A DNA stretch of 64,000 bases from Martelella endophytica (GTDB taxonomy: Bacteria > Pseudomonadota > Alphaproteobacteria > Rhizobiales > Rhizobiaceae): assembly GCF_000960975.1 (NCBI RefSeq), contig NZ_CP010803.1, forward strand, positions 961,001 through 1,025,000, read 5' to 3'. The notes below the pieces were generated by a model, which searched no databases, had not been told where the DNA came from, and saw nothing but the letters and a program-made list of their open reading frames with translations. This document shows, in pieces, positions 21,289-39,346 of the stretch (position 1 is its first letter; every line of letters begins with the position of its first letter). The position numbers and the translations under genes were made by a program.

Positions 21289-21389
21289 CGACAAAATTCC
21301 TTGGATCGACAGGCCGGGGGCATCCCTTCCGGCTTTCTCGGTTGGCTGCGGCCGGGTGCACCGGCGCATGCTTTATGGAGGACTTGTCG

Positions 21390-23014: not shown

Positions 23015-23046
23015 GAAATCCTCCCATGGCTCTCGCGAAATCAGGG

Positions 23047-23931
23047 CTATTCCTTCACACCCCCGAGAAGGATGCCCTTGTTGAAGTACTTCTGGATGAA
23101 GGGGTAGAAAATCAGGATCGGGATGATCGAGCAGACGATGATCGCCGCCGTGACCGTCTCGACCGAATAGGGCGCCGTCATCAGCGTCGCGGTGAACTGA
23201 TCGTCATCGGCGATGGTGGCGATCGTCTGGCGCAGGTAGACCTGCAGCGGCACCTTGCCCTCGTCGGTCAAAAGCACCATCGCCCAGAAGAACCCGTTCC
23301 AGCGCGCAACGACGCAGAACAGCGTGACGGTGGCGATCGCCGGCTTCGAAAGCGGGATGAACACCTTCCAGAGGATCTGGAATTCATTCGCCCCGTCCAT
23401 CTTCGCCGCCTCCTCGAAGGATTGCGGAATGCTCTCGAAGAAGTTGCGCAGCAGGATGACGTTGAAGGCGGAGACGGCAAAGCCGATGATGATGCCGAAA
23501 TAGCTGTCGAGCAGACTGAGGTCGCGCATGTTCAGGAAGAACGGGATCATGCCGGCATGGAACCACATGGTGAACGCCACCAGCAGGTTGAAGAAGCGCC
23601 GGCCGAACAGCTTGCGCCGCGACAGCGCATAGGCGCCCGGAATGATGATCAGAAGCGACATCGCCGTGCCGCCGATCGTGTAGATGAAGGTGTTGAGATA
23701 GGAGAGCCAGAATTGCGGCTCGGAAAGCACCCGGCCATAGGCGGCAAGTGTGACGTTGACCGGGGTGAGCACCACCTCGCCGGCGCGGGCGGCAAAGCCC
23801 GAGGAAAACGACAGCGCGGCAATATAGATGAACGGGTAGAGCGTCGAGAGCGTGAACAGGCCGATCAGGACAATGTTGATCCAGACGAACAGCTTGTCGC
23901 CGCGCGAATAGAGGTTCATGTTTTGCGACAT
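23047..23931 (-). CDS. algM2: ABC transporter permease, AlgM2-like
   Basis: Inner-membrane permease of the CUT1 type, 294 residues, six predicted helices. The ATPase-contact loop EEAAKMDGANEFQILWKV (about residues 185-205) is clear, and the C-terminus IQKYFNKGILLGGVKE is typical of the YtcP/LplC/AlgM2 group. ATG 23931 was chosen over 23976 because GAGGAGG lies just before it. It sits ten bases after algM1. It forms the membrane channel with AlgM1, driven by AlgS. Confidence 0.88.
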   Translation of the reverse strand: MSQNMNLYSRGDKLFVWINIVLIGLFTLSTLYPFIYIAALSFSSGFAARAGEVVLTPVNVTLAAYGRVLSEPQFWLSYLNTFIYTIGGTAMSLLIIIPGAYALSRRKLFGRRFFNLLVAFTMWFHAGMIPFFLNMRDLSLLDSYFGIIIGFAVSAFNVILLRNFFESIPQSFEEAAKMDGANEFQILWKVFIPLSKPAIATVTLFCVVARWNGFFWAMVLLTDEGKVPLQVYLRQTIATIADDDQFTATLMTAPYSVETVTAAIIVCSIIPILIFYPFIQKYFNKGILLGGVKE

Positions 23932-23941
23932 CTTGTCCTCC

Positions 23942-24856
23942 TCACCACAGCGACGTGCCGGAACGGCGCTTGGCAATCGTATTGGCCGTCATCACGAGCA
24001 CGAAGGCGACGACCGCGTTGAAGAGGCCCGCGGCGGCGGCGAGATCGTACTGGCCCTGCTGCAGGCCCTGCCGATAGATGAAGGTGTTGATGACGTCGGC
24101 CGTCTCGTAGGTGGCCGGCTGATAGAGCAGCAAAACCTTTTCGAACGAGACCTCAAGCAGGTTGCCGATGCGGATGATCAGCATGATGACGATGGTCGGC
24201 ATGATGCAGGGAATGGTGATCCGCCACATCATCTGCCAGCGCGAGGCGCCGTCGACCACCGCGCTTTCATAGAGCGAGGGCGAGACTCCGGCTATCGCCG
24301 CCAGGAACACGATCGAGCCGAAACCCGCCTCCTGCCAGATACCGGAGGTGATGAAGATGGTGCGGAACCATTCGGGCCGGGTGAGGAAGTAGATCGGCTC
24401 GACGCCGAACCAGCCGATAACGGTGTTGACGATGCCGGCCGACGGCGACAGCGCCGTGATGATGATGCCGGCGATGATCACGGTCGAGATGAAGTGCGGC
24501 AGGTAGACGATCGTCTGGGCCGTGCGCTTGAAGCTCTGGTGCAGGATCTCGTTGAACATCAGCGCGAGAATGATCGGCATCGGAAAGCCGAAGACGAGGC
24601 TTTCGAACGAGATGATCACCGTGTTCTTGAAGGCCCGCATGAACTGCGGACTGTCGAACAGCGCCTGGAAATGCTCGAAGCCGACCCAGGGGGAGCCCGA
24701 GATACCCCGGAAGACGCTGTAGTCCTTGAAGGCGATCTGCAGGCCGTACATCGGCTTGTAGAGGAAGACGACGAGCCAGATGACCATCGGCGCGAGCATA
24801 AGATAGAGCTGCCATTCGGCGCGCAGATGGTCGACGATGCGTTGGGAGCGTGTCAT
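23942..24856 (-). CDS. algM1: ABC transporter permease, AlgM1-like
   Basis: Partner permease of the alginate-oligosaccharide importer, 304 residues with about six membrane helices, an N-terminal helix LYLMLAPMVIWLVVFLY, the YKPMYGLQIAFKDY segment typical of LplB/YtcQ-associated permeases, and the EAA-type loop YESAVVDGASRWQMMWRIT near residue 195. It starts nine bases after algS and ends ten before algM2. Confidence 0.88.
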   Translation of the reverse strand: MTRSQRIVDHLRAEWQLYLMLAPMVIWLVVFLYKPMYGLQIAFKDYSVFRGISGSPWVGFEHFQALFDSPQFMRAFKNTVIISFESLVFGFPMPIILALMFNEILHQSFKRTAQTIVYLPHFISTVIIAGIIITALSPSAGIVNTVIGWFGVEPIYFLTRPEWFRTIFITSGIWQEAGFGSIVFLAAIAGVSPSLYESAVVDGASRWQMMWRITIPCIMPTIVIMLIIRIGNLLEVSFEKVLLLYQPATYETADVINTFIYRQGLQQGQYDLAAAAGLFNAVVAFVLVMTANTIAKRRSGTSLW

Positions 24857-24865
24857 GGCCGTGCC

Positions 24866-25969
24866 TCACGCGCTGACCAGGGCCGGCGCGTCGAAGGCGC
24901 GACCGGTCTCGGCATCGAAGACCTTGATCAGGTCGGGCGGGAACTGAAAGGCGGTGACGCCCTTCAAATGATCGATCCGGCCGTGGGTCTCCACCTTGGC
25001 AACAAACGGCACGCCGCCGACATGGGTATGAAGCAGCGCCTCCGAACCGAGCGTCTCGATCAGGTCGAGTTCCACCGGCACGGGTCGTCCGCCCTCGCCA
25101 AGGATGACATGCTCGGGCCGGACACCGATAACGACCTTCCGGCCCTCGAAATGGCGAAGCGCCTCGAGCGGCGGCAGCGCCACCCGTGTGCCGTCGGCGA
25201 TCACGCCCACCGGCCCCTCCGGCGTAAGCGCGACGGTCGCATCCATCTGGTTCATCGGCGGCGAGCCGATGAAGCCGGCGACGAAGGTGTTTGCGGGATT
25301 GTTGAACAAGTCCATCGGCGCGCCGATCTGCTCGATCATGCCGTTGTTCATCACCACGATCCGGTCGGCGAGCGTCATCGCCTCGACCTGGTCATGGGTG
25401 ACGTAGATGGAGGTGACGCCGAGCCGGTTGTGCAGGCGTTTGACCTCGGCGCGCATCTGGGTGCGCAGCTTGGCATCGAGGTTCGACAGGGGTTCGTCGA
25501 ACAGGAACACGTCCGGCCGCCGCACGATCGCGCGGCCCATGGCCACGCGCTGGCGCTGGCCGCCGGAAAGATCGGAGGGCCGGCGTTCGAGATAGGGCGT
25601 GAGCCCCAGAACCTCGGCGACATCGGCGACCGATTTCTTGATCTCGTCCTTCGGCGTGCGCCGGATCCGGAGCCCGAAGGCGATGTTCTCGGCGACGCTC
25701 AAGTGCGGATAGAGCGCATAGTTCTGGAACACCATCGCTACGTCGCGATCCTTCGGGGCGACGCGGTTGACGACGCGCTCTCCGATTTTCAGCGTGCCTC
25801 CCGAGATCTCCTCGAGCCCCGCAATCATGCGAAGCGTGGTCGACTTGCCGCAGCCCGACGGGCCGACAAGCACCACGAATTCCTTCTCACGCACCTCGAG
25901 ATCGATACCGCGAACGACCTCCAATGCCCCGTAGAACTTAACGATGCCTTCAAGACATACGCCAGACAT
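24866..25969 (-). CDS. algS: ABC transporter ATP-binding protein, AlgS-like (UgpC/MsmX family)
   Basis: Cytoplasmic ATPase of 367 residues energising the AlgM1M2 importer. Walker [10 protein letters not shown] (36-44), signature [19 protein letters not shown] (about 133-151), Walker [14 protein letters not shown] (about 152-164), switch His in VTHDQVEAM, and a C-terminal OB/TOBE domain (about 240-365). First gene of the minus-strand operon; its upstream gap of 178 bases is shared with the divergent gntR gene and holds two operator-like sites. Confidence 0.9.
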
Positions 25970-27161: not shown

Positions 27162-27207
27162 ATGAAATTTTCTTTCATATTGAGAATATTTTTTCATACT
27201 GCATAAT
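27162..27207 (+). promoter_or_regulatory. Regulatory box A upstream of the TRAP binding-protein gene
   Basis: ATGAAATTTTCTTTCAT (27162-27178), an ATGAAA-N5-TTTCAT inverted repeat, followed by TTTTTTCATACTGCAT about 12 bases on. The same block occurs at 29267 and 34886. A possible promoter is TTGAGA (27180) with CATAAT (27202). The nearby LacI is the likely binder. Confidence 0.65.
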
Positions 27208-27283
27208 GAATTCCATCACGAGCGTTCATTTGCGTTTTGAACGCCAGATGAGCGGACGACAATGTGCCACAGGGAGTGAGACA

Positions 27284-28261
27284 ATGAAGAAAATGACATC
27301 TGCACTGGCTGTATTGGCCGCAGGCATGACGCTTGCAGCCGGTTCCGCCAACGCCACCGTGCGCCTGAAGCTGGCCGACGCGCTGGCCGCCGACCATCCG
27401 ACAAGCGTGATTCTGGAACAGTTTGCCGACGAGGTTGAAGAAAAGACCGACGGCGAGGTCAAGATCCGGCTCTACATGAACGGCGTTCTCGGCTCCGAGC
27501 GCGAGGTTCTGGAACAGGTGCAGAATGGCGCCGTGGACATCACCCGCGTCAGCGCTGCCAATCTCGAGAACTTCAATCCGATCTACCAGGCCTTTACACT
27601 GCCCTACCTGTTCAACAGCCAGGAGCATTTCTACGAGGTCATGGATGGTCCGATCGTCGACCCGGTCTACCAGGCTTCGCTCGACAGCGGCTTCATGGGC
27701 CTGACCTATTTCGACAGCGGCGCCCGCTCGTTCTACACCAAGTCGAAATGCGTCGAGACGCCCGACGACCTCAATGGCCAGAAGCTGCGCGTCATCAACT
27801 CGCATACCTCGATCCGGATGGTCGAACTGATGGGCGGCATTCCCACGCCCCTGCCCTATGGCGAAATCTACACCGCCCTGCAGCAGGGCGTGATTGACGG
27901 CGCGGAAAACAACCCGACAGCGCTGACGCTCGGCCGTCACGGCGAAGTGGTCAAATGCTATTCGCTGGACGAACACCTGCGCATTCCGGATTTCCTGGTG
28001 ATCTCCAAGACCGCGTTGGACAAGCTGACGGATGAGCAGGTCGCCATCATCAAGGAGGCCGCCGTGAAAGCCACGCAGGCGCAGAAGCAGGTCTGGAACG
28101 AGGCCGTCGACGAGGCCATGCAGCAGATCAAGGAAATGGGCGTCACCATCGTGACCCCCGACAAGGCGCCTTTCCAGGAAAAAGTTGCCCCTCTGATCGA
28201 GGAATACAAGAAGGATCCGGCAATCGGCCAGCTGGTCGATGCCATTCAGAACGCTCAGTAA
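27284..28261 (+). CDS. TRAP transporter substrate-binding protein (DctP family)
   Basis: Periplasmic solute receptor of 325 residues with signal peptide MKKMTSALAVLAAGMTLAAG and cleavage near ANA. DctP family features: LKLADALAADHP at the mature N-terminus, NGVLGSEREVLEQVQNGAVDI, LRVINSHTSIRMVELMGG with the conserved carboxylate-binding Arg, and GEIYTALQQGVIDGAENN. ATG 27284 was chosen because GGGAGTGAGACA precedes it; the upstream frame to 27206 is leader. The membrane subunits lie separately at 35043-36870, under the same regulatory box. Given the neighbours the ligand is probably an unsaturated galacturonide or other uronate (inference). Confidence 0.88.
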   Translation: MKKMTSALAVLAAGMTLAAGSANATVRLKLADALAADHPTSVILEQFADEVEEKTDGEVKIRLYMNGVLGSEREVLEQVQNGAVDITRVSAANLENFNPIYQAFTLPYLFNSQEHFYEVMDGPIVDPVYQASLDSGFMGLTYFDSGARSFYTKSKCVETPDDLNGQKLRVINSHTSIRMVELMGGIPTPLPYGEIYTALQQGVIDGAENNPTALTLGRHGEVVKCYSLDEHLRIPDFLVISKTALDKLTDEQVAIIKEAAVKATQAQKQVWNEAVDEAMQQIKEMGVTIVTPDKAPFQEKVAPLIEEYKKDPAIGQLVDAIQNAQ

Positions 28262-28327: not shown

Positions 28328-28376
28328 CAGACGTTGCCGCGGCAACGTTCCCCCATCAAAAGACTGGAAGAAACCC

Positions 28377-29138
28377 ATGATCACCGATGATTTTCACCTT
28401 TCCGGAAAAACGGCCATCGTCACCGGCTGCGATACCGGCCTTGGCCAGGGCATGGCCGTCGCGCTGGCCGAAGCGGGTGCGGACATTGTCGGCGTCAATA
28501 TCGTCGCTCCGACGGAAACCATTGCCAAGGTCGAGGCGCTTGGACGCCGTTTCGTGTCGATCGAGGCCAATCTGATGAAGCAGGATGACATCCCTCAGAT
28601 CGTGGAAACGGCCGTCCGCGCATTCGGAAAAGTCGATATTCTGGTCAACAATGCCGGGATTATCCGCCGCGAGGATGCCGTTGCCTTTTCCGAAAAGGAC
28701 TGGGACGACGTCATGAACATCAACATCAAGAGCGTCTTCTTCCTTTCGCAGGCCGTTGCCCGCCGGTTCATCGAACAGGGGCATGGCGGCAAGATCATCA
28801 ATGTCGCGTCGATGCTGTCGTTCCAGGGCGGCATCCGGGTACCCTCCTACACCGCCTCGAAGAGCGGCGTCATGGGCATCACCAAGCTGCTTGCCAATGA
28901 ATGGGCGCATCATGGCATCAACGTCAACGCCATCGCTCCCGGCTACATGGCCACCAACAACACCGCGGCGCTCAGGGCCGACGAAGAACGCAGCAACGAG
29001 ATCCTCGGCCGCATTCCGGCCGCGCGCTGGGGTCTGCCGCGCGATCTTGCCGGACCGGTGGTGTTTCTTGCCAGTGACGCCTCCTCTTATGTGAACGGCT
29101 ATACCCTCGCGGTCGATGGCGGCTGGCTCGCCCGGTGA
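28377..29138 (+). CDS. kduD: 2-deoxy-D-gluconate 3-dehydrogenase type SDR (KduD)
   Basis: SDR of 253 residues, the KduD length. In pectin breakdown KduD reduces 3-deoxy-D-glycero-2,5-hexodiulosonate to 2-keto-3-deoxygluconate using NAD(P)H. Motifs: VTGCDTGLGQG, NNAGIIRRED, the catalytic SYTASKSGV (Tyr-x3-Lys) and PGYMATNNTAALRAD, characteristic of KduD. Start ATG 28377 has GGAAGAA before it; the frame open from 28239 overlaps the terminator and is not used. KduI is encoded 1.3 kb downstream in the next unit. Confidence 0.9.
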   Translation: MITDDFHLSGKTAIVTGCDTGLGQGMAVALAEAGADIVGVNIVAPTETIAKVEALGRRFVSIEANLMKQDDIPQIVETAVRAFGKVDILVNNAGIIRREDAVAFSEKDWDDVMNINIKSVFFLSQAVARRFIEQGHGGKIINVASMLSFQGGIRVPSYTASKSGVMGITKLLANEWAHHGINVNAIAPGYMATNNTAALRADEERSNEILGRIPAARWGLPRDLAGPVVFLASDASSYVNGYTLAVDGGWLAR

Positions 29139-29266: not shown

Positions 29267-29312
29267 ATGAAATTTTCTTTCATGTTTCGCAAACATTTTT
29301 CATGATGCATAT
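29267..29312 (+). promoter_or_regulatory. Regulatory box B upstream of the GH105-kduI operon
   Basis: ATGAAATTTTCTTTCAT (29267-29283), identical to box A over 17 bases, then TTTTTCATGATGCAT. The GTG start of the GH105 gene lies 64 bases beyond the inverted repeat. Same orientation relative to the downstream gene as boxes A and C. Confidence 0.7.
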
Positions 29313-29347: not shown

Positions 29348-30439
29348 GTGCTTTCCAAAAAGCAACTGAAACAGAAGATCGAACTCCTGGTCGCGGGCCT
29401 GAAGTCACTGCGGGATGAAGGCAAGTTCAACGAACCGAATCTCGACGGGACTGCCGGCGACTATGTCAGCTTCAACGCCTGGGAATGGCCGCAGGGCGTC
29501 GGGCTCTACGGTCTCGCCCAGATGTGGCTGAAGACGGGTGATGCCGATGTGAAGACCCTGCTGGAGGACTGGTATTCCGCCCATATCGAAAAGGGTCTGC
29601 CGCCGCAAAACGTCAACACCACCGCGCCGATGCTGGCGCTTTCGCTGCTGTGGCGCGAAACCCGCGATCCCCGCTTCGAAGCGCCGATGAAGGACTGGGC
29701 GGACAGGATCCTGACCGAAATGCCGCGCACGCGCTGCGGCGGTTTCCAGCACAATGTCTCGGACAAAATCAATGACGACGAATTGTGGGACGACACGCTG
29801 TTCATGGTGGCGCTGTTTCTGGCAAGCTATGGCGAGGGCGCGGGACGCCGCGACCTCGTGAGCGAGGCCGCCTTCCAGTTTCTGGTGCACACGCATTATC
29901 TGGCGGAGCCGGAAACCGGGCTGTGGTTCCACGGCTGGACCTTTGACGGCAACCACAATTTCGCCCGCGCCCGCTGGGCGCGCGGCAATTCCTGGATTTC
30001 CGCCGGCGTTCTTGACCTTCTCGAGCTTGCCGAACTCGATGACGCCACCAAGCGCTACCTCACGGAAGTGGTCAAGGCCCAGCTTGAAACGCTGATCGGC
30101 TATCAGGCTAAAAGCGGCGCCTGGCACACGCTGGTGGACGACCCGTCTTCCTATGAGGAAATCTCCGCCACCGCCGCCATCGGCTACGCGCTTCTGAAAG
30201 GCGCGCGGCTCGGCATCGGCCCGGAAAGCTGGCGCGAGGCAGGTCTGAAGGCGCTTGCCGTCACGCTCGACAATATCGGCGAGGACGGCATCGTCGACAA
30301 TGTGTCCTATGGCACCCGCATGGGCCACGATCTCCAGTTCTACAAGGACATTCCGATCCAGCCGACCGGCTATGGCCAGTCCATGGCCCTGCTGCTGCTG
30401 GTCGAGGCCCTCAATATTGCCAAAGCGGAGGAAGAATGA
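29348..30439 (+). CDS. GH105 unsaturated rhamnogalacturonyl/galacturonyl hydrolase
   Basis: Cytoplasmic hydrolase of 363 residues, an alpha6/alpha6 barrel of the YteR/YesR type that removes the unsaturated galacturonyl residue left by pectate or rhamnogalacturonan lyases. Seen: AWEWPQGVGLYGL, the catalytic-Asp region LWDDTLFMVALFLA, FHGWTF and RARWARGNSW, and GYGQSMALLLL near the end. There is no signal peptide. It starts with GTG 29348 behind a strong GGAGGAAAA. Its stop overlaps the kduI start by four bases. The product 5-keto-4-deoxyuronate feeds KduI and KduD. Confidence 0.88.
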   Translation: MLSKKQLKQKIELLVAGLKSLRDEGKFNEPNLDGTAGDYVSFNAWEWPQGVGLYGLAQMWLKTGDADVKTLLEDWYSAHIEKGLPPQNVNTTAPMLALSLLWRETRDPRFEAPMKDWADRILTEMPRTRCGGFQHNVSDKINDDELWDDTLFMVALFLASYGEGAGRRDLVSEAAFQFLVHTHYLAEPETGLWFHGWTFDGNHNFARARWARGNSWISAGVLDLLELAELDDATKRYLTEVVKAQLETLIGYQAKSGAWHTLVDDPSSYEEISATAAIGYALLKGARLGIGPESWREAGLKALAVTLDNIGEDGIVDNVSYGTRMGHDLQFYKDIPIQPTGYGQSMALLLLVEALNIAKAEEE

Positions 30440-31275
30440 TGTTTGAAGACACACGCTATTCCGTTTCCCCGAAAGACGTTCGCGGCTACAGCAACGAACG
30501 CCTGCGGGAGGAATTCCTCATCGACAACCTGTTCGTCGCCGACACGCTGCAGATGGTCTACACCCATGTCGACCGGATGATCATCGGCGGCTTTCTGGCG
30601 GTGGACGGCGAAGCCGAAATCGCTGACGGCGCCGCGGTTGGCACGCCCGGCTTCTTCGATGCCCGCGAGATGGGCATCGTCAATCTCGGCGGCACGGGAA
30701 CCGTGACGGTCGACGGTACGGTCCATACGGTCGAGCACCGCGATATCGTCTATGTCGGACGCGACACGAAATCCGTCCGCATGACCTCCGAGGACCCGGC
30801 CAACCCTGCCGCGTTCTACATGAACTCGGTTCCCGCCGGTTACGCCGTGCCGTCGGCGCTGATCCGCAAGGCCGATTCCAAGCCCGTCACCATGGGCGAC
30901 GAGGCGCATGCCAACAAGCGCACGCTGCGCATGTATATCCATCCGGAAGTGTCGCCGAGCTGCCTGCTGTTGATGGGCATCACCGAACCCGCGCCCGGCA
31001 GCATCTGGAACACCGAGCCGCCGCATGTCCACGAACGCCGCATGGAAGCCTATGTCTATTTCAACATGTCGCCCGAAGACCGGGTCATGCATTTCATGGG
31101 CGAGCCGAAACAGGTGCGCAATATCGTGGTCGCCGACCGGCAGGGCATTCTTTCGCCCGCATGGTCGATCCATATGGGTGCCGGCACTGGACCCTACTGC
31201 TTCGTCTGGGGCATGACCGGTGAAAACAAAGCCTATAATGATGTGACGCCCGTTGCCGTGAAAGATCTTCTGTGA
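30436..31275 (+). CDS. kduI: 5-keto-4-deoxyuronate isomerase (KduI)
   Basis: Isomerase of 279 residues converting 4-deoxy-L-threo-5-hexosulose uronate to 3-deoxy-D-glycero-2,5-hexodiulosonate, the substrate of KduD. Zinc ligands are visible in PPHVHERRMEAY (His-x-His and Glu) and in WSIHMGAGT. Other KduI signatures are FLIDNLF and VYTHVDRMIIGG. ATG 30436 overlaps the GH105 stop and follows GGAGGAA; ATG 30439 is an alternative. The downstream gene begins at its stop. Confidence 0.95.
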   Translation: MMFEDTRYSVSPKDVRGYSNERLREEFLIDNLFVADTLQMVYTHVDRMIIGGFLAVDGEAEIADGAAVGTPGFFDAREMGIVNLGGTGTVTVDGTVHTVEHRDIVYVGRDTKSVRMTSEDPANPAAFYMNSVPAGYAVPSALIRKADSKPVTMGDEAHANKRTLRMYIHPEVSPSCLLLMGITEPAPGSIWNTEPPHVHERRMEAYVYFNMSPEDRVMHFMGEPKQVRNIVVADRQGILSPAWSIHMGAGTGPYCFVWGMTGENKAYNDVTPVAVKDLL

Positions 31276-33770
31276 TGGCCCAACAACCAAAAAATGGCGC
31301 AATGCGCCGGCCGCTGCCGAACGGCACGCCGGTCTGCTACTGGCATGTATCGGCCATTGCGCAAGAAGAATACAACGTGCCCGACGCCACCATGTCGGGC
31401 CATATGGATGCCCAGTTCTTCCTCACCAAGGAAAAGAACTTCATCCCGCACGAATATCCCTGCCGCACGCAGTTCGTCAGCGAACGGCGCGGCAAGCGCC
31501 CTTTGATCGTCGAAAAACAGAGGCCCGGGCGGATCTGGACGCCGTTCGGCTCGCCGCGCGTCGACCTGTCCGGCTTCTGGTTCCGCGCCACCGCGGTTTC
31601 CGCTTGGGCGGAAACGCGCATCGAGGCTAAAACCGCCGGAACGGCGACGCTGAAACTCAGCTGCTGCGGCGGCGCCATCCTCTTCGTCAACGGCGAAGAG
31701 GCGGGGTTCATGAGCGTCTATCAGCGCAATTTCGAAACCGATCAGGCATTCGAAGTGGAGCTGAAAGCCGGACTGAACGAGATTGCCGTATTCTTCGATG
31801 ATCTCGCCGAACGCGACGCCCGCTATTTCTTCGAGCTCGACTACTGCGACGGGCCGGAAGCCGTCGTTTCTCTAGATGTCCCTTGCGAAAGCGGACTTGC
31901 CGACGAGATCGAAAGCATGCTGGAAACCATGCATTTCGAGCAGCCGGCCTATTCCTCGGGAACCGTCGCCTTTCATTGCCCGCAGACCGTCAGCCGCGAC
32001 CTCGATGTCGAGATCCTCGTCGCGGGCGATTTCCTCGCCGAGGAACACGACACATTTACGACCCGCCTACCCGCCGGTTCCGAGCGGCTGGTCGTCGGCG
32101 ACGTGTCGTCGTTTCACAGCGACTTCCGCCATTTCGAGGTGCGCCTCAGCGCCGGCGGCCTGACCCTGTCGCGGCCGTTCACGGTTGAGATCGCGCGCTG
32201 CGAGGACCAGGGCGCACCACCCGAAAGCCTCGACGGTCGCATCGACGAAGCGCTCCGCCATGTCGCCGAGAATGGCTATGCGGATGCGATTTCGGCGCTG
32301 GCGCGGCTCGGACTCGGTCTTGGCGACGCAGAGACCGAGGCGATGATCGAGGCTTCTCTGCCGAAAATCGAGAACTGCCACGACTGCGCCGATTTTCATC
32401 TCGTGCCGCTGCTGTTCGGGCGGATCCGCTACGGCGATCTTATTTCGGAGGCCATTCGCGCGCGGATTGATGCCGCCACGCTCAACTTCCGCTACTGGCT
32501 GGACGAGCCCGGCAATGACGTGCAGTGGTATTATTCGGAAAACCACGCGCTGCTGTTCCACACCGCCGCCTATCTGGCGGGGCATTTCCATGCGGACAAG
32601 ATGTTCGTTCGCGCCAATGTGACGGGGGCCGAACAGTCAGAACGCGGCGCGGCGCGGCTTAGGGACTGGTTCGACCATTTCGAAAAATGGGAGATGGCCG
32701 AGTTCAACTCGGTTCCCTATTTCCCGATCGACCTCAAGGGCCTGACGACGCTCTACGCCCTTGCCCATGACGAGGATATCCGCGAGCGCGCCGGCAAGGC
32801 GATCCTGCGGCTGATCTCGGTGGTTGCCGCCTCCGCCCATCACGGCACGCTGACCGCCGCACAGGGCCGCTCCTACGAGCATACGCTGATGGCCGCACGC
32901 ACCAGCGAACTGTCGGCAATGGCCCGCGTTCTCTGGGGGCTCGGCAATTACGGCCGCACCTTCCAGACGCTACCGCAATTCCTGCTGTGCCTGCGCGATT
33001 TCGGCCTTTCGATCCCTGAAAGCGATCGCGACAAGGCCCGGCTTGCCGGTGGCGCACACCAGGAATGGACGTTCTCGCAGGGCGAAAACCGGTTCGCTCA
33101 CCTTTACCACTACAAGACCGCGGAAACGGCGATGGGCTCGCTGGCCCGCTATCGCTGGGGCGAATGGGGCTATCAGGAAACCGTGCTGCAACTGCGGATC
33201 GGCCGCAATCCCGATGCCCAGATCTGGGTGAACCATCCCGGCGAGGTGATCCATTGCGGTTTCGGCAGGCCCTCCTACTGGGGTGGTTGCGGCGCGCTGC
33301 CACGTGTGCACCAGTACCGCAACCTTGCCGTGGTTCTGTTCGAAACCCATGAGGGACAACCGGATTTCAGCCATATCTGGTTCCCCGCAAGGGCCTTCGA
33401 CGAAACCGTCGCAGCGCCCAGCCTTGCCTGCGCGCGTTCGGGTGACGGATTTGTCATGGTCAGCGGTACGGCCCCTCTCGAGCCGATCGAGAACGGCCCG
33501 ACCGCCGGAATGGAAATCCGCCAGACCGGCCGCAGGACCGCATGGCTGTTCCGGCTGGCGGAAAGCGGAGAGGTGGAAGGCGGGCTCGCCGACTTCCGCC
33601 AGCGTTTCGAAGCCTTGGCCTACGCCCTCGCCGAAGACGGGACCATCACCGTCGACGATCCGGACTATGGCGCCGTCGCCTTCGGAACGGATGGCACGAT
33701 TGCGGCGGAGGGCCGCAGCCTCAACCCCGCCGACTGGACGATCGAGGGCACGATCCGCAGCTTCGACTAG
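31275..33770 (+). CDS. Large putative polysaccharide-active enzyme of unassigned family
   Basis: A protein of 831 residues translationally coupled to kduI (ATG shares the A of the kduI TGA; GTG 31272 is an alternative start). I do not recognise the family. Visible layout: a beta-rich N-terminal third with a jelly-roll-like stretch (GFWFRATAVSAWAETRIEA then LKLSCCGGAILFVNG), a helical middle (about 330-700) with RYWLDEPGNDVQWYYSENHA and YEHTLMAARTSELSAMARVL, and a beta-rich end with SYWGGCGALPRVHQY and HIWFPARAFDE. This resembles the build of alpha/alpha-toroid lyases and hydrolases. There is no signal peptide. The context (GH105, KduI, box B) suggests action on imported uronate-containing oligosaccharides; catalysis is not proven. 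Confidence 0.6.
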   Translation: MAQQPKNGAMRRPLPNGTPVCYWHVSAIAQEEYNVPDATMSGHMDAQFFLTKEKNFIPHEYPCRTQFVSERRGKRPLIVEKQRPGRIWTPFGSPRVDLSGFWFRATAVSAWAETRIEAKTAGTATLKLSCCGGAILFVNGEEAGFMSVYQRNFETDQAFEVELKAGLNEIAVFFDDLAERDARYFFELDYCDGPEAVVSLDVPCESGLADEIESMLETMHFEQPAYSSGTVAFHCPQTVSRDLDVEILVAGDFLAEEHDTFTTRLPAGSERLVVGDVSSFHSDFRHFEVRLSAGGLTLSRPFTVEIARCEDQGAPPESLDGRIDEALRHVAENGYADAISALARLGLGLGDAETEAMIEASLPKIENCHDCADFHLVPLLFGRIRYGDLISEAIRARIDAATLNFRYWLDEPGNDVQWYYSENHALLFHTAAYLAGHFHADKMFVRANVTGAEQSERGAARLRDWFDHFEKWEMAEFNSVPYFPIDLKGLTTLYALAHDEDIRERAGKAILRLISVVAASAHHGTLTAAQGRSYEHTLMAARTSELSAMARVLWGLGNYGRTFQTLPQFLLCLRDFGLSIPESDRDKARLAGGAHQEWTFSQGENRFAHLYHYKTAETAMGSLARYRWGEWGYQETVLQLRIGRNPDAQIWVNHPGEVIHCGFGRPSYWGGCGALPRVHQYRNLAVVLFETHEGQPDFSHIWFPARAFDETVAAPSLACARSGDGFVMVSGTAPLEPIENGPTAGMEIRQTGRRTAWLFRLAESGEVEGGLADFRQRFEALAYALAEDGTITVDDPDYGAVAFGTDGTIAAEGRSLNPADWTIEGTIRSFD

Positions 33771-33829: not shown

Positions 33830-34861
33830 TCAGCCCTTGCCACCCTTCGCCCGCGCCGTCGACCCGCGTTCGGTCAGCGAGCAGGACAGTTCCGTGCGGC
33901 GCGACAGGAAGGGTTCGTTGTCGAGAAGGTCGCGGATCATGTCCAGCGCAGCCGCCCCCATCTCGCGCATCGGGATCTGAACCGTGGTCAGCGGCGGATC
34001 AAGGAAGTCGCTTTGCGGCAGGCCGTCTATCCCCATCACCGAAACATCGCCGGGAACCGACAGGCCAAGTTCGCGCAAACCGAAAATGGCGCCGGCCGCA
34101 AGGCTGTCGCCGGCCGCGAGAACGGCCGTGAAGGCGTTGCCCTTTTCCCCGACATGACGGCGTATCGCCTCGATCGCGGCCTCGGGTGTCCAGTCGGTCG
34201 CATCGACCACGAGATCACGCCAGTGGACGCCCTCGATCGTCTCGATCTCGTCGCGCCAGCCTTCGAGGCGCCGCAGAATGGTGCGCCGGCCGGGGCGGGC
34301 AAGAAACAGGATGCGGGAATGGCCAAGCGATTTCAGGTAGCGTGTGGCAAGGGCTGCGGCCGCGCGATTGTGGGGCGCGATGCTCGACAGCCGCATCAGC
34401 GGATCGTCGCCATTGACCAGCAGAACGGGCTTGCGGAACGCGCGGGCCGGCACCAGCATCTCATCCTCATCGATGGTCAGCATCAGCACACCGGCGATTT
34501 CGGGATCACCGGCAGCCTCGTCCAGCATGCGGCGCTCGTCCTCCGCGTTCGAAATCGCCTTTGTCGCCAGCGACAGGCCGAGAATCTCGGCGCGCTCGCG
34601 CATGCCCTCCAGAACGAAGGCGGTGAACTGGTTCCGCTGATAGTCGAGCATGGCGCTGGCGCTGGCCGCGACGATGACCTTCAGGCCCGCGATCGACATC
34701 GGCACATGGTAGTTCTGCGACTTGGCCGCCTGCAGGATCTTTTCCCTGAGCTCCGGCCGCACCCCCGGCGTACCCGACAGCGCGCGCGAGGCGGTTGACG
34801 GCGAGACGCCGCAATAGCGCGCCAGATCGCTCAGCCGGACCCGCCTGCTTTCCTTTTTCAT
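33830..34861 (-). CDS. LacI-family transcriptional regulator
   Basis: Regulator of 343 residues: N-terminal LacI helix-turn-helix (VRLSDLARYCGVSPSTASRALSG) and a periplasmic-binding-protein-like effector domain with GDVSVMGIDGLP and DPPLTTVQIPMREMG. ATG 34861 is preferred over 34867 because GGAGGG lies six bases before it. It is divergent from the TRAP permease genes, with box C in the shared gap. It probably represses the whole pectin block through boxes A-C in the absence of a uronate inducer (inference). Confidence 0.88.
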   Translation of the reverse strand: MKKESRRVRLSDLARYCGVSPSTASRALSGTPGVRPELREKILQAAKSQNYHVPMSIAGLKVIVAASASAMLDYQRNQFTAFVLEGMRERAEILGLSLATKAISNAEDERRMLDEAAGDPEIAGVLMLTIDEDEMLVPARAFRKPVLLVNGDDPLMRLSSIAPHNRAAAALATRYLKSLGHSRILFLARPGRRTILRRLEGWRDEIETIEGVHWRDLVVDATDWTPEAAIEAIRRHVGEKGNAFTAVLAAGDSLAAGAIFGLRELGLSVPGDVSVMGIDGLPQSDFLDPPLTTVQIPMREMGAAALDMIRDLLDNEPFLSRRTELSCSLTERGSTARAKGGKG

Positions 34862-34885
34862 GTGCATCCCTCCGTTTCCAACAGC

Positions 34886-34931
34886 ATGAAATATTCTTTC
34901 ATATAGCGCAATCTTTTTTCATGATGCATGA
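34886..34931 (+). promoter_or_regulatory. Regulatory box C between the LacI gene and the TRAP QM operon
   Basis: ATGAAATATTCTTTCAT (34886-34902), one base different from boxes A and B, then TTTTTTCATGATGCAT. It is 24 bases before the lacI-type start on the minus strand, so the regulator probably controls itself as well as the permease genes. Confidence 0.7.
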
Positions 34932-35042: not shown

Positions 35043-35546
35043 ATGATAGATAAAACAAAACACGCGCTGGAAAGCCTGCTGTTGTACCTGACCTCCGCCA
35101 TGCTTGCGATCATGGTCGGTCTGATGCTGTGGCAGGTCTTCACCCGCTACGTACTCGCCGCGCCGGCGCTCTACACCGAAGAGCTTCTCCGGTTCATGAT
35201 GATCTGGATGGCCTTTCTGGGGTCGGCCTATGCCTTCGGCACGCGCCAGCATCTCTCGCTGGTCTTTGCCATCGAGGCGCTGTCCGGGCGCAAGAAGCTG
35301 ATCCTGATGCTGATCAACGACACCGTCATCCTGGTATTCTCGGTGCTGATCATGTTCCTCGGCGGCATCAAGGCGGTGACCTCCTCGATGACGCAGTTTT
35401 CCCCGATCATGCGCATCCCCATCGGCGACGTCTACCTGATCATGCCGATCGCCGCCGTTCTGATCTTCATCCTTCAGTCGCTGAACATGATCATTCTCGT
35501 CCGCGACAGCAACCGGGCACCGCTGGAACCGGTGGGGAGCCTCTGA
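35043..35546 (+). CDS. TRAP transporter small permease (DctQ family)
   Basis: Small membrane subunit of 167 residues with four predicted helices; typical DctQ features are FTRYVLAAPALYTEELLRFMMIWMAFLGSAYAF and the conserved charged KRK-like loop after helix two. It follows GGAGGACGCTC. It is one base from the large permease gene and works with it and the receptor encoded at 27284 to take up an acidic sugar using the sodium or proton gradient. Confidence 0.88.
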   Translation: MIDKTKHALESLLLYLTSAMLAIMVGLMLWQVFTRYVLAAPALYTEELLRFMMIWMAFLGSAYAFGTRQHLSLVFAIEALSGRKKLILMLINDTVILVFSVLIMFLGGIKAVTSSMTQFSPIMRIPIGDVYLIMPIAAVLIFILQSLNMIILVRDSNRAPLEPVGSL

Positions 35547-35547
35547 C

Positions 35548-36870
35548 ATGGACTTTATCTTCGACTATGTGGACGAGACCATTTTCGCGTCCATCCTGCT
35601 CTTCGGCCTGTTCTTCCTGATGCTGGCCCAGGGCATCGCCATCTCGGTCGCGATCGCGGTGTCATCGATCCTGACCGGCCTGTTCTTCCTGCCGCCGAGC
35701 GTCGCCTTCTTCGTCGCAACGCAGAAGATGTTTGCGGGCGTCGATTCATTCACCCTGCTGGCAATCCCCTTTTTCATCCTCGCCGGCAACATCATGAACA
35801 AGGGCGGCATCGCCATCCGGCTGGTGAACCTCGCCAAGCTGATCGGCGGACGCCTGCCGGGCTCGCTTGCCCATACCAACGTGATCGCCAACATGCTGTT
35901 CGGCTCGATCTCGGGCTCGGCGATCGCGGCGGCCGCCGCCGTCGGCGGCACCATGGCGCCCCTGCAGAAGAAGGAAGGCTACGACCCGACCTTCTCCGCC
36001 GCCGTCAACATCGCCTCGGCGCCCTCCGGCATCCTGATCCCGCCGAGCGGTCCGCTGATCCTGTTCTCGCTGGTTTCGGGCGGCACCTCGATCTCCGCGC
36101 TCTTCATCGGCGGCTACGTGCCCGGCCTGCTGATGGGCCTTTCGGTGATGATCGTCGCCGGCGTCATTGCCAAACGGCGGAAGTTTCCGGTCTCGGAAAT
36201 CCCCGGCTTCGGCGAAGCCGCGAAGATCGTCTGGCAGGCCCTGCCGCCACTGCTGATGGTGGTGGTCGTGATCGGCGGCATCGTCATCGGCGCCTTCACG
36301 GCGACCGAGGGCGCGGCCGTGGCCGTCCTCTACTCCTTCGTCCTGTCGCTGATCTACCGGCTTGCAACCTGGCGCGAATATGTCGATGTGCTGAAAAGCT
36401 CGATGGTCACCAGCGCCGTCATCCTGTTCCTGATCGCGGCGTCAGGGGTGATGTCCTATGTCATGACCATCACCGGCATTCCGGACGCGATCGCTGATGC
36501 GCTTCTGACCTTCAAGAACCCGATCGTCATCTTGCTGATCATGAATATCTGCCTGCTGATCATCGGCTTCTTCATGGACCTGACTCCGGCGGTGCTGATC
36601 TTCACCCCGATCTTCCTGCCGATCGCGCGGGAAGTGGGCATGGACCCGGTCCAGTTCGGCCTGATGATGATCTTCAACCTCGGCATCGGCTCGATGACGC
36701 CGCCGGTGGGCTCGGTCCTGTTCGTCGGCTGCAGCATTGCCGGCGTCAGCATCGAGAAGGTGGCAAAGCCGCTGCTGCCCTTCTTCATCACGCTGGTGAT
36801 CGCCCTCCTGATGATCACATACATCCCGGCGCTCACGCTCGGCCTGCCGCGCCTGCTGGGTCTGATGTAG
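35548..36870 (+). CDS. TRAP transporter large permease (DctM family)
   Basis: Main transport subunit of 440 residues with about 11-12 helices. DctM signatures: FFILAGNIMNKGGIA, NMLFGSISGSAIAAAAAVGG, IPPSGPLILFSLVSGGTS and GIGSMTPPVGSVLFVGC. It follows the small permease gene directly. A GC hairpin (36896-36912) lies in the 70-base gap to the GH31 gene, so readthrough into GH31 may be partial. Confidence 0.92.
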   Translation: MDFIFDYVDETIFASILLFGLFFLMLAQGIAISVAIAVSSILTGLFFLPPSVAFFVATQKMFAGVDSFTLLAIPFFILAGNIMNKGGIAIRLVNLAKLIGGRLPGSLAHTNVIANMLFGSISGSAIAAAAAVGGTMAPLQKKEGYDPTFSAAVNIASAPSGILIPPSGPLILFSLVSGGTSISALFIGGYVPGLLMGLSVMIVAGVIAKRRKFPVSEIPGFGEAAKIVWQALPPLLMVVVVIGGIVIGAFTATEGAAVAVLYSFVLSLIYRLATWREYVDVLKSSMVTSAVILFLIAASGVMSYVMTITGIPDAIADALLTFKNPIVILLIMNICLLIIGFFMDLTPAVLIFTPIFLPIAREVGMDPVQFGLMMIFNLGIGSMTPPVGSVLFVGCSIAGVSIEKVAKPLLPFFITLVIALLMITYIPALTLGLPRLLGLM

Positions 36871-36940: not shown

Positions 36941-39346
36941 ATGCGCACCCTGAAAAACTGGAAACTTGCCGAGCAGAACGACCACGCCGTAAGGCTCATC
37001 GTCGATGACCGCCACAGCCTGGACATCTCCGTTCTCGAGGAGACGCTGTTCAGGGTAGCGTTGCGCAAGGATGGGACGTGGCGGCTCGACCGCACCTGGT
37101 CGATCGCGCCGACGGAAGACGTCCCCGCCGAAGGCCGCTCCCGCGACGACCTTGCCGGGTTTTCGCGCCCCCGGGCCGAGGTCAAGATCGACACGGACGC
37201 ATGTCGGCTGACGATCGCCACCGCCACGCTGCGCGTGACGGTCGAACGGCCGCTGACCCTGCGCTGGGAACATCGCACGGCAGAAGGAAACTGGGCCCTC
37301 GTGGCCGAGGAGCGGCCGACCGGCGCCTACATGCTGGGTATCGGCGACCACCGCAACAGCCACTTCCTGCTGCGCAAGCCGGGCGAGCGGGTTTACGGCC
37401 TCGGCGAGAAAGCGGGTGACCTCGAGCGTTCCGGACGCCGCTTCGAGATGCGCAATCTCGATGCGATGGGCTACGATGCCCGCACCACCGACCCGCTCTA
37501 CAAGCACCTGCCGGTAACATTTACCGTGACGCCCGAGGCCGGCGCGTTCTCGCTGTTTTACGACAACCTGTCGTCGTGCTGGTTCGATATCGGCAACGAG
37601 TTCGACAATTATCACAAGCCGTTTCGCGCCTATCGCGCCACCGATGGCGACCTCGACTATTATTTCGCCTGGGCGACGAAACTGCTCGACCTCGTCCGCA
37701 ACCACACCCGCCTGACCGGCGGGACCGCCTTCATGCCGCGCTGGGCGCTCGGCTATTCGGGCTCCACCATGGCCTATACCGACCGACCGAACGCGCAGCA
37801 GGAACTCGAAGGCTTTCTGGCGCAGCTCGCCGAGTACGATATTCCCTGTGACAGCTTCCAGATGTCGTCGGGCTATACATCCATCGACGGCAAGCGCTAT
37901 GTCTTCAACTGGAACGAAGACAAGTTTCCCGATGTCGAAGGCATGACGCGCCACTATGCGGCCGCAGACGTCACGCTGATTGCCAACATCAAGCCCGCTT
38001 TGCTGCAGGACCATCCACGCTTCCGCGAAGCGCTGGAGGCCGGCCTGTTCATCCGCGACAGCGAGAGCGAAGGCTACGCAGACGCCGTCTTCTGGGACGA
38101 TTCCGGCGCCCATCTGGACTTCACCAATCCCGCCGCCGTGGCGTGGTGGAAGGACGGCGTGACCACGCAGCTTCTTGAACGCGGCATCGCCTGCACCTGG
38201 AACGACAACAATGAATATGAAATCTGGGACGACGGCGCCCGGTGCCACGGCTTCGGCCGCGAAATTCCGATCGCCCTGATCCGGCCGCTGCATTCCATGC
38301 TGATGAGCCGGGCGTCCCGCGACGCCCAGCAGGCATTCGCGCCTGAGAGCCGCCCCTATCTCATTTCCAGGGCCGGATGCCCCGGCATCCAGCGCTACGC
38401 CCAGACATGGACCGGCGACAACTACACCCGCTGGGAAACCCTGCGCTACAATATCCGCATGGGCCTCGGGCTCTCGCTGTCCGGCATCTATAATATAGGT
38501 CACGATGTCGGCGGTTTTTCCGGTCCGAAGCCCGAGCCGGAGCTGTTCGTGCGCTGGGTCCAGAACGGCATCTTCCATCCCCGTTTCACCATTCACTCAT
38601 GGAACGACGACGGAACCGCGAACGAGCCGTGGATGTACCCGGACGTCCTGCCGCTGATCCGGCAGGCGATCAGGTTGCGCTACCGGCTGCTGCCCTATCT
38701 CTACACCCAGACCTGGATGGCGACGTGCGCGCACGAGCCGATCCTGCGCCCGACCTTCCTCGATCATCCCGACGATCAGCGCACCTACGACGAAACCGAC
38801 GACTTCATGCTCGGAAGAGACATTCTGGTTGCCAATGTCGTCGACAAGGCGGCCACCGAACGGGACGTCTACCTGCCCGAAAACGCCACCGGGTGGTGGG
38901 ACGCGCGAAGCGGTCAGTATCACGCGCCGGGCACGTCCGTGACCGTTCCGGTCGCGCTTGACAGCATTCCCCTGTTCATTCGCGCCGGCGCGGTCATTCC
39001 CCTCTGCGACGAAACCTCCCGTGCTCATGAGGATGCCGACCGCGGCAGAACGATCGCGCTGTTTCCGGTGCCTGATCGGTTCGAGAGCGAACGCGTTCAT
39101 TACGACGATGACGGGCAAACGACCGGATGGCAGTCCCCCGAGGCCCATGCGATCACCACGTTCCGGTTTTCCGGCGACGGGGATGCACTCTCCCTTTCCC
39201 GTGCGGTTTCGGGTCAATATCAGCCCGGCTTCCGGCACCATCATGTATGGCTGCCGCAAGCAGAGACACGGCGACTGCGCTGCAATGGCTTCGACGCGAC
39301 GCCCGGGCAGGCGCCGCGCGATGAACTCTCCGGATATCTGGGCTGA
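36941..39346 (+). CDS. Glycoside hydrolase family 31 enzyme (alpha-glucosidase/alpha-xylosidase type)
   Basis: An 801-residue retaining alpha-glycosidase with no signal peptide. Seen: the N-terminal beta domain ending FLLRKPGERVYGLGEKAGDL, FMPRWALGYSGS at the start of the barrel, nucleophile region TWNDNNEYEIWDD (the WxDxNE motif), acid/base region TWTGDNYTRWETL, GLSLSGIYNIGHDVGGF and a C-terminal beta domain with YDDDGQT. It is last in the TRAP QM operon, 70 bases after dctM. The substrate cannot be read from sequence; in this context an alpha-linked side sugar of a plant or algal polysaccharide is plausible. Confidence 0.88.
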   Translation: MRTLKNWKLAEQNDHAVRLIVDDRHSLDISVLEETLFRVALRKDGTWRLDRTWSIAPTEDVPAEGRSRDDLAGFSRPRAEVKIDTDACRLTIATATLRVTVERPLTLRWEHRTAEGNWALVAEERPTGAYMLGIGDHRNSHFLLRKPGERVYGLGEKAGDLERSGRRFEMRNLDAMGYDARTTDPLYKHLPVTFTVTPEAGAFSLFYDNLSSCWFDIGNEFDNYHKPFRAYRATDGDLDYYFAWATKLLDLVRNHTRLTGGTAFMPRWALGYSGSTMAYTDRPNAQQELEGFLAQLAEYDIPCDSFQMSSGYTSIDGKRYVFNWNEDKFPDVEGMTRHYAAADVTLIANIKPALLQDHPRFREALEAGLFIRDSESEGYADAVFWDDSGAHLDFTNPAAVAWWKDGVTTQLLERGIACTWNDNNEYEIWDDGARCHGFGREIPIALIRPLHSMLMSRASRDAQQAFAPESRPYLISRAGCPGIQRYAQTWTGDNYTRWETLRYNIRMGLGLSLSGIYNIGHDVGGFSGPKPEPELFVRWVQNGIFHPRFTIHSWNDDGTANEPWMYPDVLPLIRQAIRLRYRLLPYLYTQTWMATCAHEPILRPTFLDHPDDQRTYDETDDFMLGRDILVANVVDKAATERDVYLPENATGWWDARSGQYHAPGTSVTVPVALDSIPLFIRAGAVIPLCDETSRAHEDADRGRTIALFPVPDRFESERVHYDDDGQTTGWQSPEAHAITTFRFSGDGDALSLSRAVSGQYQPGFRHHHVWLPQAETRRLRCNGFDATPGQAPRDELSGYLG

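What the first reader, a model, noticed from the sequence alone, without database searches (positions are those of the whole stretch)
31275..33770. Unassigned 831-residue protein coupled to kduI
It sits in an operon with GH105 and KduI, has a beta-helical-beta build like toroidal lyases and hydrolases, and contains conserved-looking acidic/His clusters (WYYSENHA, TLMAARTSELS), yet I cannot place it in a known family. It is the best candidate here for an undescribed carbohydrate enzyme acting on imported pectin fragments.
Basis: partly seen in the sequence, partly recalled or inferred. Interest (0 to 1): 0.7.

Follow-up and report, generated by a model that had tools for sequence, protein, structure and literature searches.

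The report
Unnamed partner enzyme for GH105 hydrolases
A bacterial enzyme family with no place in the family libraries searched sits beside genes that break down unsaturated sugar acids, and its predicted shape suggests that it makes the unsaturated sugar acid those genes need.

Summary
The ORF is real: 31275-33770 (+), 831 aa, overlapping the stop codon of kduI. It has no Pfam or NCBIfam match over cut-off and no PDB sequence match, yet at least 817 relatives exist. Three family members lie in this genome, each within 1 kb of a GH105 gene. GH105 lies within 3 kb in 77 of 103 loci examined.

The model (pLDDT 88) has a GH2-like sandwich followed by an (alpha/alpha) toroid and an antiparallel beta-sheet. 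With the catalytic part alone, all 19 Foldseek PDB chains at E<=0.001 (16 entries) are uronate lyases or dermatan sulfate epimerase. Asn423, Tyr482, Arg532 and Tyr534 never vary in 103 sequences.

A 17-bp motif found only three times in the genome precedes dctP-kduD, GH105-kduI-X and dctQM. No lyase gene was recognised in those units.

Best explanation: a cytoplasmic enzyme that beta-eliminates at a terminal uronate, most likely a dehydratase, making the delta-4,5 end that GH105 hydrolyses for KduI and KduD. P29_PDnc and BcGDH work this way. The substrate is unknown; pectin is not shown. Some genomes with a relative lack GH105, the main fact against.

The parts
31275..33770 (+). The finding: 831-aa protein X (alternative GTG start at 31272)
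31317..31856 (+). X residues 15-194: beta-sandwich like the N-terminal domain of GH2 beta-glucuronidases (accessory)
32220..33038 (+). X residues 316-588: (alpha/alpha) toroid
33057..33737 (+). X residues 595-821: antiparallel beta-sheet domain, as in toroid lyases
32535..32546 (+). S421-E422-N423-H424 motif: proposed neutralisation of the uronate carboxylate (N423/H424)
   Evidence: E422, N423, H424 invariant in 103 of 103, S421 in 102; role inferred
32718..32720 (+). Y482: proposed catalytic base taking the C5 proton
   Evidence: invariant in 103 of 103; role inferred by analogy with Y229 of BcGDH and Y258 of Alg17c (mutant named titles)
32868..32876 (+). R532-S-Y534: proposed counterpart of R285/Y289 of BcGDH (acid on the leaving group)
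   Evidence: R532, Y534 invariant in 103 of 103; role inferred
33231..33236 (+). N653-H654 of the beta-sheet domain, possible further active-site residues
   Evidence: N653 in 103 of 103, H654 in 100 of 103; role inferred
30436..31275 (+). kduI, 5-dehydro-4-deoxy-D-glucuronate isomerase
   Evidence: NF002091 1e-107, PF04962 8.6e-23
29348..30439 (+). GH105 unsaturated uronyl hydrolase (NCBIfam calls it 'beta-galactosidase BglB')
   Evidence: PF07470 2e-82; NF051900; closest PDB chains 3qwt (GH105), 3pmm, 4xuv (GH105)
28365..29138 (+). kduD, 2-dehydro-3-deoxy-D-gluconate 5-dehydrogenase
   Evidence: NF006528 4.2e-146, TIGR01832 4.1e-131
27206..28261 (+). dctP, TRAP substrate-binding protein
   Evidence: PF03480 1.4e-79
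33830..34867 (-). LacI-family regulator
   Evidence: PF00356, PF13377
35043..36870 (+). dctQ-dctM, TRAP permeases (35043-35546, 35548-36870)
   Evidence: dctM matches the gene annotated TRAP large permease in L208; dctQ by place beside dctM and by tblastn in 7 loci; neither was scanned against Pfam
27162..27178 (+). Shared 17-bp motif ATGAAATTTTCTTTCAT upstream of dctP-kduD (proposed LacI operator)
29267..29283 (+). Same motif upstream of GH105-kduI-X
34886..34902 (+). Same motif (ATGAAATATTCTTTCAT) between lacI and dctQ

Best explanation
X is a cytoplasmic enzyme that beta-eliminates at the terminal uronate of an imported uronic-acid disaccharide or glycoside. A conserved Tyr (Y482) takes the C5 proton, N423/H424 (perhaps H654 and R532) neutralise the carboxylate, and Y534 protonates the leaving group at C4. 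The leaving group is most likely water, which makes X a uronate dehydratase. The product carries a delta-4,5-unsaturated uronyl end. GH105 hydrolyses it off, and KduI, then KduD, take the freed 4-deoxy-5-keto-uronate towards KDG. Shown: gene, fold of the model, invariant residues, linkage to GH105 and KduI, shared motif. Inferred: the reaction, the residue roles, the leaving group, the place in the cell and the substrate.
Confidence: 0.55

Rival explanations
1. X is an intracellular exo- or oligo-lyase: the same beta-elimination, but the leaving group is a sugar at O4 of the uronate (as xanthan lyase acts on xanthan side chains), which also leaves a delta-uronyl end for GH105.
For: Fold neighbours are mostly true lyases, including oligo-alginate lyases and xanthan lyase. 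Some relatives sit beside GH38 alpha-mannosidase or GH28, which could handle a longer oligosaccharide. It also explains genomes without GH105 if a monosaccharide is released.
Against: The smallest modules show no annotated gene for a released neutral sugar and use TRAP transporters, which as a rule carry small acids (established knowledge). Lyases that give monosaccharide delta-uronate would not need the frequent GH105.
Confidence: 0.22
2. X is a glycoside hydrolase of a new family, acting before or after GH105 on the same oligosaccharide.
For: Invariant acidic residues exist (D370, D373, D410, E422, E476, D486, E747). It has a GH2-like accessory domain. One UniRef name is 'Alpha-L-rhamnosidase six-hairpin glycosidase do...' (P0140).
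Against: Hydrolases with related barrels (GH146, GH92, GH63) come only at Foldseek E>0.01, below the 19 lyase/epimerase chains. Partner sugars differ between relatives while GH105 is the commonest companion, so the constant substrate part looks like the uronate. GH154 was filed as a hydrolase and two members proved to be dehydratases (PMC12269599, passages).
Confidence: 0.13
3. X is a uronyl C5-epimerase, like dermatan sulfate epimerase 1, which has the same fold class and abstracts the C5 proton (recalled).
Against: Epimerisation gives no unsaturated substrate for GH105 or KduI, its commonest partners.
Confidence: 0.05

Closest known systems
BcGDH / former GH154 beta-D-glucuronate dehydratases (PMC12269599; 9o4u, 8oi4)
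   Same: Expected reaction, pairing with GH88/GH105, (alpha/alpha) toroid, Asn-x / Tyr / Arg...Tyr series of conserved residues
   Different: No sequence match found; X adds a beta-sheet domain and a GH2-like domain, 831 aa against 384-391 residues in the PDB chains
P29_PDnc ulvan oligosaccharide dehydratase (PMC8511951)
   Same: Dehydrates the non-reducing uronate to feed a GH105
   Different: Sequence not at hand here, so not compared; [quoted passage not shown]
PL17/PL15 alginate lyases, PL35 and PL8 GAG lyases, PL12/PL21 heparinases (PL numbers partly recalled)
   Same: Toroid plus antiparallel beta-sheet; Asn/His ... Tyr spacing of 55-56 where named in titles, 58 here
   Different: No sequence match found; X has no leader-like start and no lyase was recognised beside it
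Human dermatan sulfate epimerase 1 (6hzn)
   Same: Best Foldseek match of the catalytic part; acts on uronates
   Different: Different outcome (epimerisation) and no GH105 context

Membership tests
GH154 / BcGDH dehydratases | Sequence similarity to members | tested here: not met
   Profile of 11 family members against PDB sequences (copy of 2026): 4 matches at E<=10, none of them 8oi4 or 9o4u, which were released in 2024 and 2025 (that the sequence file holds them was not checked by name)
GH154 / BcGDH dehydratases | (alpha/alpha) toroid fold | tested here: met
GH154 / BcGDH dehydratases | Genomic pairing with GH88/GH105 | tested here: met
   77 of 103 loci within 3 kb; three of three in this genome; exceptions
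GH154 / BcGDH dehydratases | Dehydration of a terminal uronate | not testable with these tools
   needs the enzyme assay
Heparinase II/III-like families (PF07940, PF16332) | Pfam profile match | tested here: not met
   No such match for P0001 or among the families matched by any of 11 members at E<=1; hhalign against a six-row self-made profile 0.5% probability
Toroid polysaccharide lyases (PL8, 12, 15, 17, 21, 35, 39 as a structural class) | Toroid plus antiparallel beta-sheet | tested here: met
   (PL numbers partly recalled)
Toroid polysaccharide lyases (PL8, 12, 15, 17, 21, 35, 39 as a structural class) | Sequence similarity to a PL family with a solved member | tested here: not met
Toroid polysaccharide lyases (PL8, 12, 15, 17, 21, 35, 39 as a structural class) | Catalytic Asn/His-Tyr set in the cleft | tested here: inconclusive
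   Conserved residues with like spacing, but no superposition or coordinates available
P29_PDnc dehydratases | Sequence similarity | not tested
Uronyl C5-epimerases (DSE1) | Epimerisation without loss of O4 | not testable with these tools
   fold match only

The most novel reading that the evidence does not exclude
X founds a third family of oligosaccharide uronate dehydratases, with no detectable sequence kinship to GH154, spread through Alphaproteobacteria with a haloarchaeal relative. It lets cells strip terminal glucuronate or galacturonate from many glycans by dehydration plus GH105 instead of by a uronidase, and explains GH105-kduI operons that have no lyase.
Probability: 0.5. Interest if true: 0.75.

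Novelty: new variant of a known kind. Interest (0 to 1): 0.6.

Why it matters
Removing a terminal uronate by dehydration followed by GH88/GH105 hydrolysis rests, in the papers seen, on two unrelated families (PMC8511951, PMC12269599). A third family, large, unannotated and apparently cytoplasmic, would say that this route is common in soil, plant-associated and marine Alphaproteobacteria. It would give a function to hundreds of proteins now called hypothetical, question names such as 'beta-galactosidase' for the partner GH105, and can be tested by one spectrophotometric assay.

Tried and rejected
Sequence routes gave nothing. Pfam and NCBIfam searches found only a weak PA14-like patch, below the cut-off, in P0001 and scattered weak hits in 11 members. 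PHROGs and PADLOC were not searched. PDB sequence search with one sequence found nothing, and with a profile four unrelated weak hits. hhalign against a small profile of heparinase-like proteins, and of the window's own heparinase-like protein against the family, gave probability 0.5% and 0.1%. That profile was shallow and badly chosen: 6 of 30 rows, kept by an arbitrary H.H.D filter, and no characterised lyase, so it is weak evidence.

The full-length Foldseek search was led by GH2 enzymes, because of the accessory domain. I therefore folded and searched the catalytic part alone.

A first neighbourhood script picked shadow ORFs and found X in only 71 of 80 loci. It was replaced by tblastn. 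One script label ('GalNAcDeac') was a mistaken placeholder; that gene is a LacI regulator.

A palindrome scan of four gaps (14-20 bp) found no shared palindrome. The shared motif was seen by eye in the same output and then counted.

A pectin-specific role was considered and not adopted, because relatives sit with GH38 or NagB-like genes. Ten paper searches (open-licence PMC papers only, listings read, passages of four papers) showed no description of this family; none of the searches could name it directly. Whether the Agrobacterium picA gene belongs to this family was not tested.

Full report
What is there. The 831-residue frame at 31275-33770 (+) is real and starts inside the stop codon of kduI (TGATG). 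Upstream lie kduD (28365-29138), GH105 (29348-30439) and kduI (30436-31275). A LacI-type regulator (33830-34867, minus strand) and TRAP transporter genes flank them: dctP (27206-28261) upstream and dctQM (35043-36870) downstream (dctQM by comparison with annotated loci). The genome is one contig of 4.81 Mb, and the nearest named relatives of X are from Martelella. Neither X nor GH105 begins with a hydrophobic leader (by eye), so both should be cytoplasmic (inference).

One regulon. The gaps upstream of dctP, of GH105 and between lacI and dctQ each hold the 17-mer ATGAAAT(T/A)TTCTTTCAT. The window has three sites with up to two mismatches allowed, where 0.02 are expected by shuffling. The whole genome has just these three with up to one mismatch, and the reversed control pattern has none. 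A looser form (ATGAAA, 5 bases, TTTCAT) occurs in 7 of 80 named loci, the Martelella, 'Marinicella' and Cohaesibacter ones (L048-L054), 1 to 3 times each. It occurs in none of the other 73 (one of them also a Martelella, L055), nor in four plasmid loci. That LacI binds it is inferred. In the units so marked I recognised a transporter, KduD, GH105, KduI and X, and no lyase. A GH31-like gene follows dctM and may belong to the third unit.

A family without a name. P0001 has no NCBIfam match at E<=1 and only a sub-cut-off PA14 patch in Pfam. None of 11 diverse members gives a lyase family in Pfam, and a profile of them finds no relative among PDB sequences. 817 of 7995 scored candidates reach E<=0.001; of the 120 listed, those with a source name are called hypothetical or uncharacterised. 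In 297 genomes of the order 20 have a match, one of them (G243) a marginal 63-residue stretch. Among 61 relatives 14 have one, among them 12 of the 13 genomes of the genus, counting this one. In 299 genomes of the phylum 6 have one, counting this one. In 72,556 plasmid records 199 match, chiefly Rhizobium (123) and Pseudosulfitobacter (40, near-copies among those listed), with 3 from the archaeon Haladaptatus. The archaeal protein I compared has no aligned counterpart of the N-terminal domain but keeps stretches of the catalytic part (33% identity over 206 residues, 28% over 246).

Active-site residues. In 103 aligned members, including the archaeal one, E422, N423, H424, E476, Y482, R532, Y534, N653, W669 and H700 never vary; H654 is kept in 100. 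The motifs at 421-424, 532-534 and 660-665 fall in or beside low-confidence loops of the model (418-422, 533-536, 660-664), as mobile active-site loops often do (inference). In BcGDH, alanine at ten positions, N176, N177, Y229, R285 and Y289 among them, left no detectable activity; Y229 is proposed as base and Y289 as acid. The authors add that the assay substrate is poor, so a small loss could look complete (PMC12269599, passages). The order Asn-x / Tyr / Arg...Tyr is the same here. The distance from the second residue of the first pair to the Tyr is 58 here, 52 in BcGDH, 56 in Alg17c (mutants H202L and Y258A, titles) and 55 in heparinase II (H202A/Y257A, title). This is a parallel by order and spacing; I had no coordinates to superpose.

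Constant and changing partners. Of 80 named loci (the best 80 of 592, and more exist), GH105 is found in 61, KduI in 60, LacI in 78 and KduD in 18 (tblastn; flanks are cut at contig ends in some). I also took a wider set of 103 loci: the window, these 80, 15 regions I chose from the genome search, and 7 plasmid regions I chose from 199. Some come from the same genome. GH105 lies within 3 kb in 77, 6.1 kb away in 2, and is not seen in 24. By best-matching type: window type 66 of 87, L128 type 5 of 7, L129 type 1 of 3, R. etli type 5 of 5, archaeal 0 of 1. A tree of 35 rows chosen from these shows GH105 partners in both main branches, with at least 5 changes of that label (shuffled mean 8.9). 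In this genome three members exist, 839, 8 and 892 bases from a GH105 gene, although only seven PF07470 genes pass the cut-off. The other partners change. L128 has a Dpp-type transporter, an HAD protein and a hydroxyacid dehydrogenase (below NCBIfam cut-offs). L129 has a NagB-like protein (below NCBIfam cut-offs), ROK genes and KduI. Rhizobium etli has GH28 polygalacturonase 'PglB', and other relatives have GH38 alpha-mannosidase. PglB of Agrobacterium is reported to act in polygalacturonate degradation (PMC6683767, passage). In Pseudosulfitobacter and Salipiger plasmids the set TRAP, GH105, kduD, lacI, kduI and X stands together with no lyase annotated in the stretch shown (the gene table of that collection is incomplete).

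Mechanism. GH105 and GH88 need a delta-4,5-unsaturated uronyl end, made by a lyase in the pathway first described (PMC8511951, outline). Here the regulon shows none, but it has X, with a lyase fold and a lyase-like residue set. The simplest reading is that X makes that end inside the cell. Two such enzymes are published: P29_PDnc with a GH105 (PMC8511951, abstract and passages) and BcGDH with a GH88 (PMC12269599, passages). The authors of the latter were led to theirs by the same kind of co-localisation and state that the two are unrelated in primary structure. I therefore favour a dehydratase (0.55), then an exo-lyase with the same chemistry (0.22), then a hydrolase (0.13).

What speaks against. 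Of 12 genomes searched for PF07470, 3 have no match (G005, G291 and the MAG behind L122) and one only a sub-cut-off match (G179); G222, of the same genus, has one modest match of 44 bits. Each has a member of the family. In G005 and G179 the member sits by GH38, and the members of G005, G179 and L122 keep the residues above. There X must work without GH105, or with an unknown hydrolase. Two other L129-type loci (L137, L139) also lack GH105 nearby. Of six genomes tested whose X-locus lacks GH105 among the 80, five have PF07470 elsewhere. KduI-family genes exist in all 11 genomes tested, but the profile also covers IolB.

Novelty. By fold and presumed chemistry this is a known kind; by sequence and domain build it looks like a new family of it. 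Ten searches of open-licence PMC papers showed no description of it, but a nameless family is hard to search for, and subscription papers are mostly not held.

Noticed in passing
window 29348-30439: NCBIfam names this GH105 'beta-galactosidase BglB' (NF051900, 545.7 bits), and the GH105 partners of both paralogues too; context points to unsaturated uronyl hydrolase, so the name may mislead.
   Followed up: partly
window 18955-21369 and 21431-25969 (minus strand): A second, separate heparinase-like protein (DUF4962 + Hepar_II_III_C) with a solute-binding protein, and by eye two permeases and an ABC ATPase: probably another uronate-glycan uptake unit.
   Followed up: partly
window 36941-39346: GH31-like glycosidase (alpha-glucosidase/alpha-xylosidase models, below cut-off; GH31 label recalled) right after dctM; not found in any of 80 related loci, so it may be a local addition.
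   Followed up: no
L129:8892-14185 (own genome): Paralogue beside a NagB-like protein, ROK genes, GH105 and KduI, which suggests a uronate-amino sugar substrate.
   Followed up: partly
L133, L134: Relatives next to GH38 alpha-mannosidase in genomes with no or only a sub-cut-off PF07470 match; how an unsaturated end would be removed there is open.
   Followed up: partly
L210:8791-10776 (Haladaptatus plasmid): Archaeal relative without the GH2-like domain, in a cluster of Gfo/Idh/MocA oxidoreductases and sugar phosphate isomerases, a different context.
   Followed up: partly
L211:8983-13978 (Rhizobium etli p42f): Relative followed by GH105 and PglB-type GH28; the Agrobacterium pgl/picA genes may belong to the same theme (not tested).
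   Followed up: no
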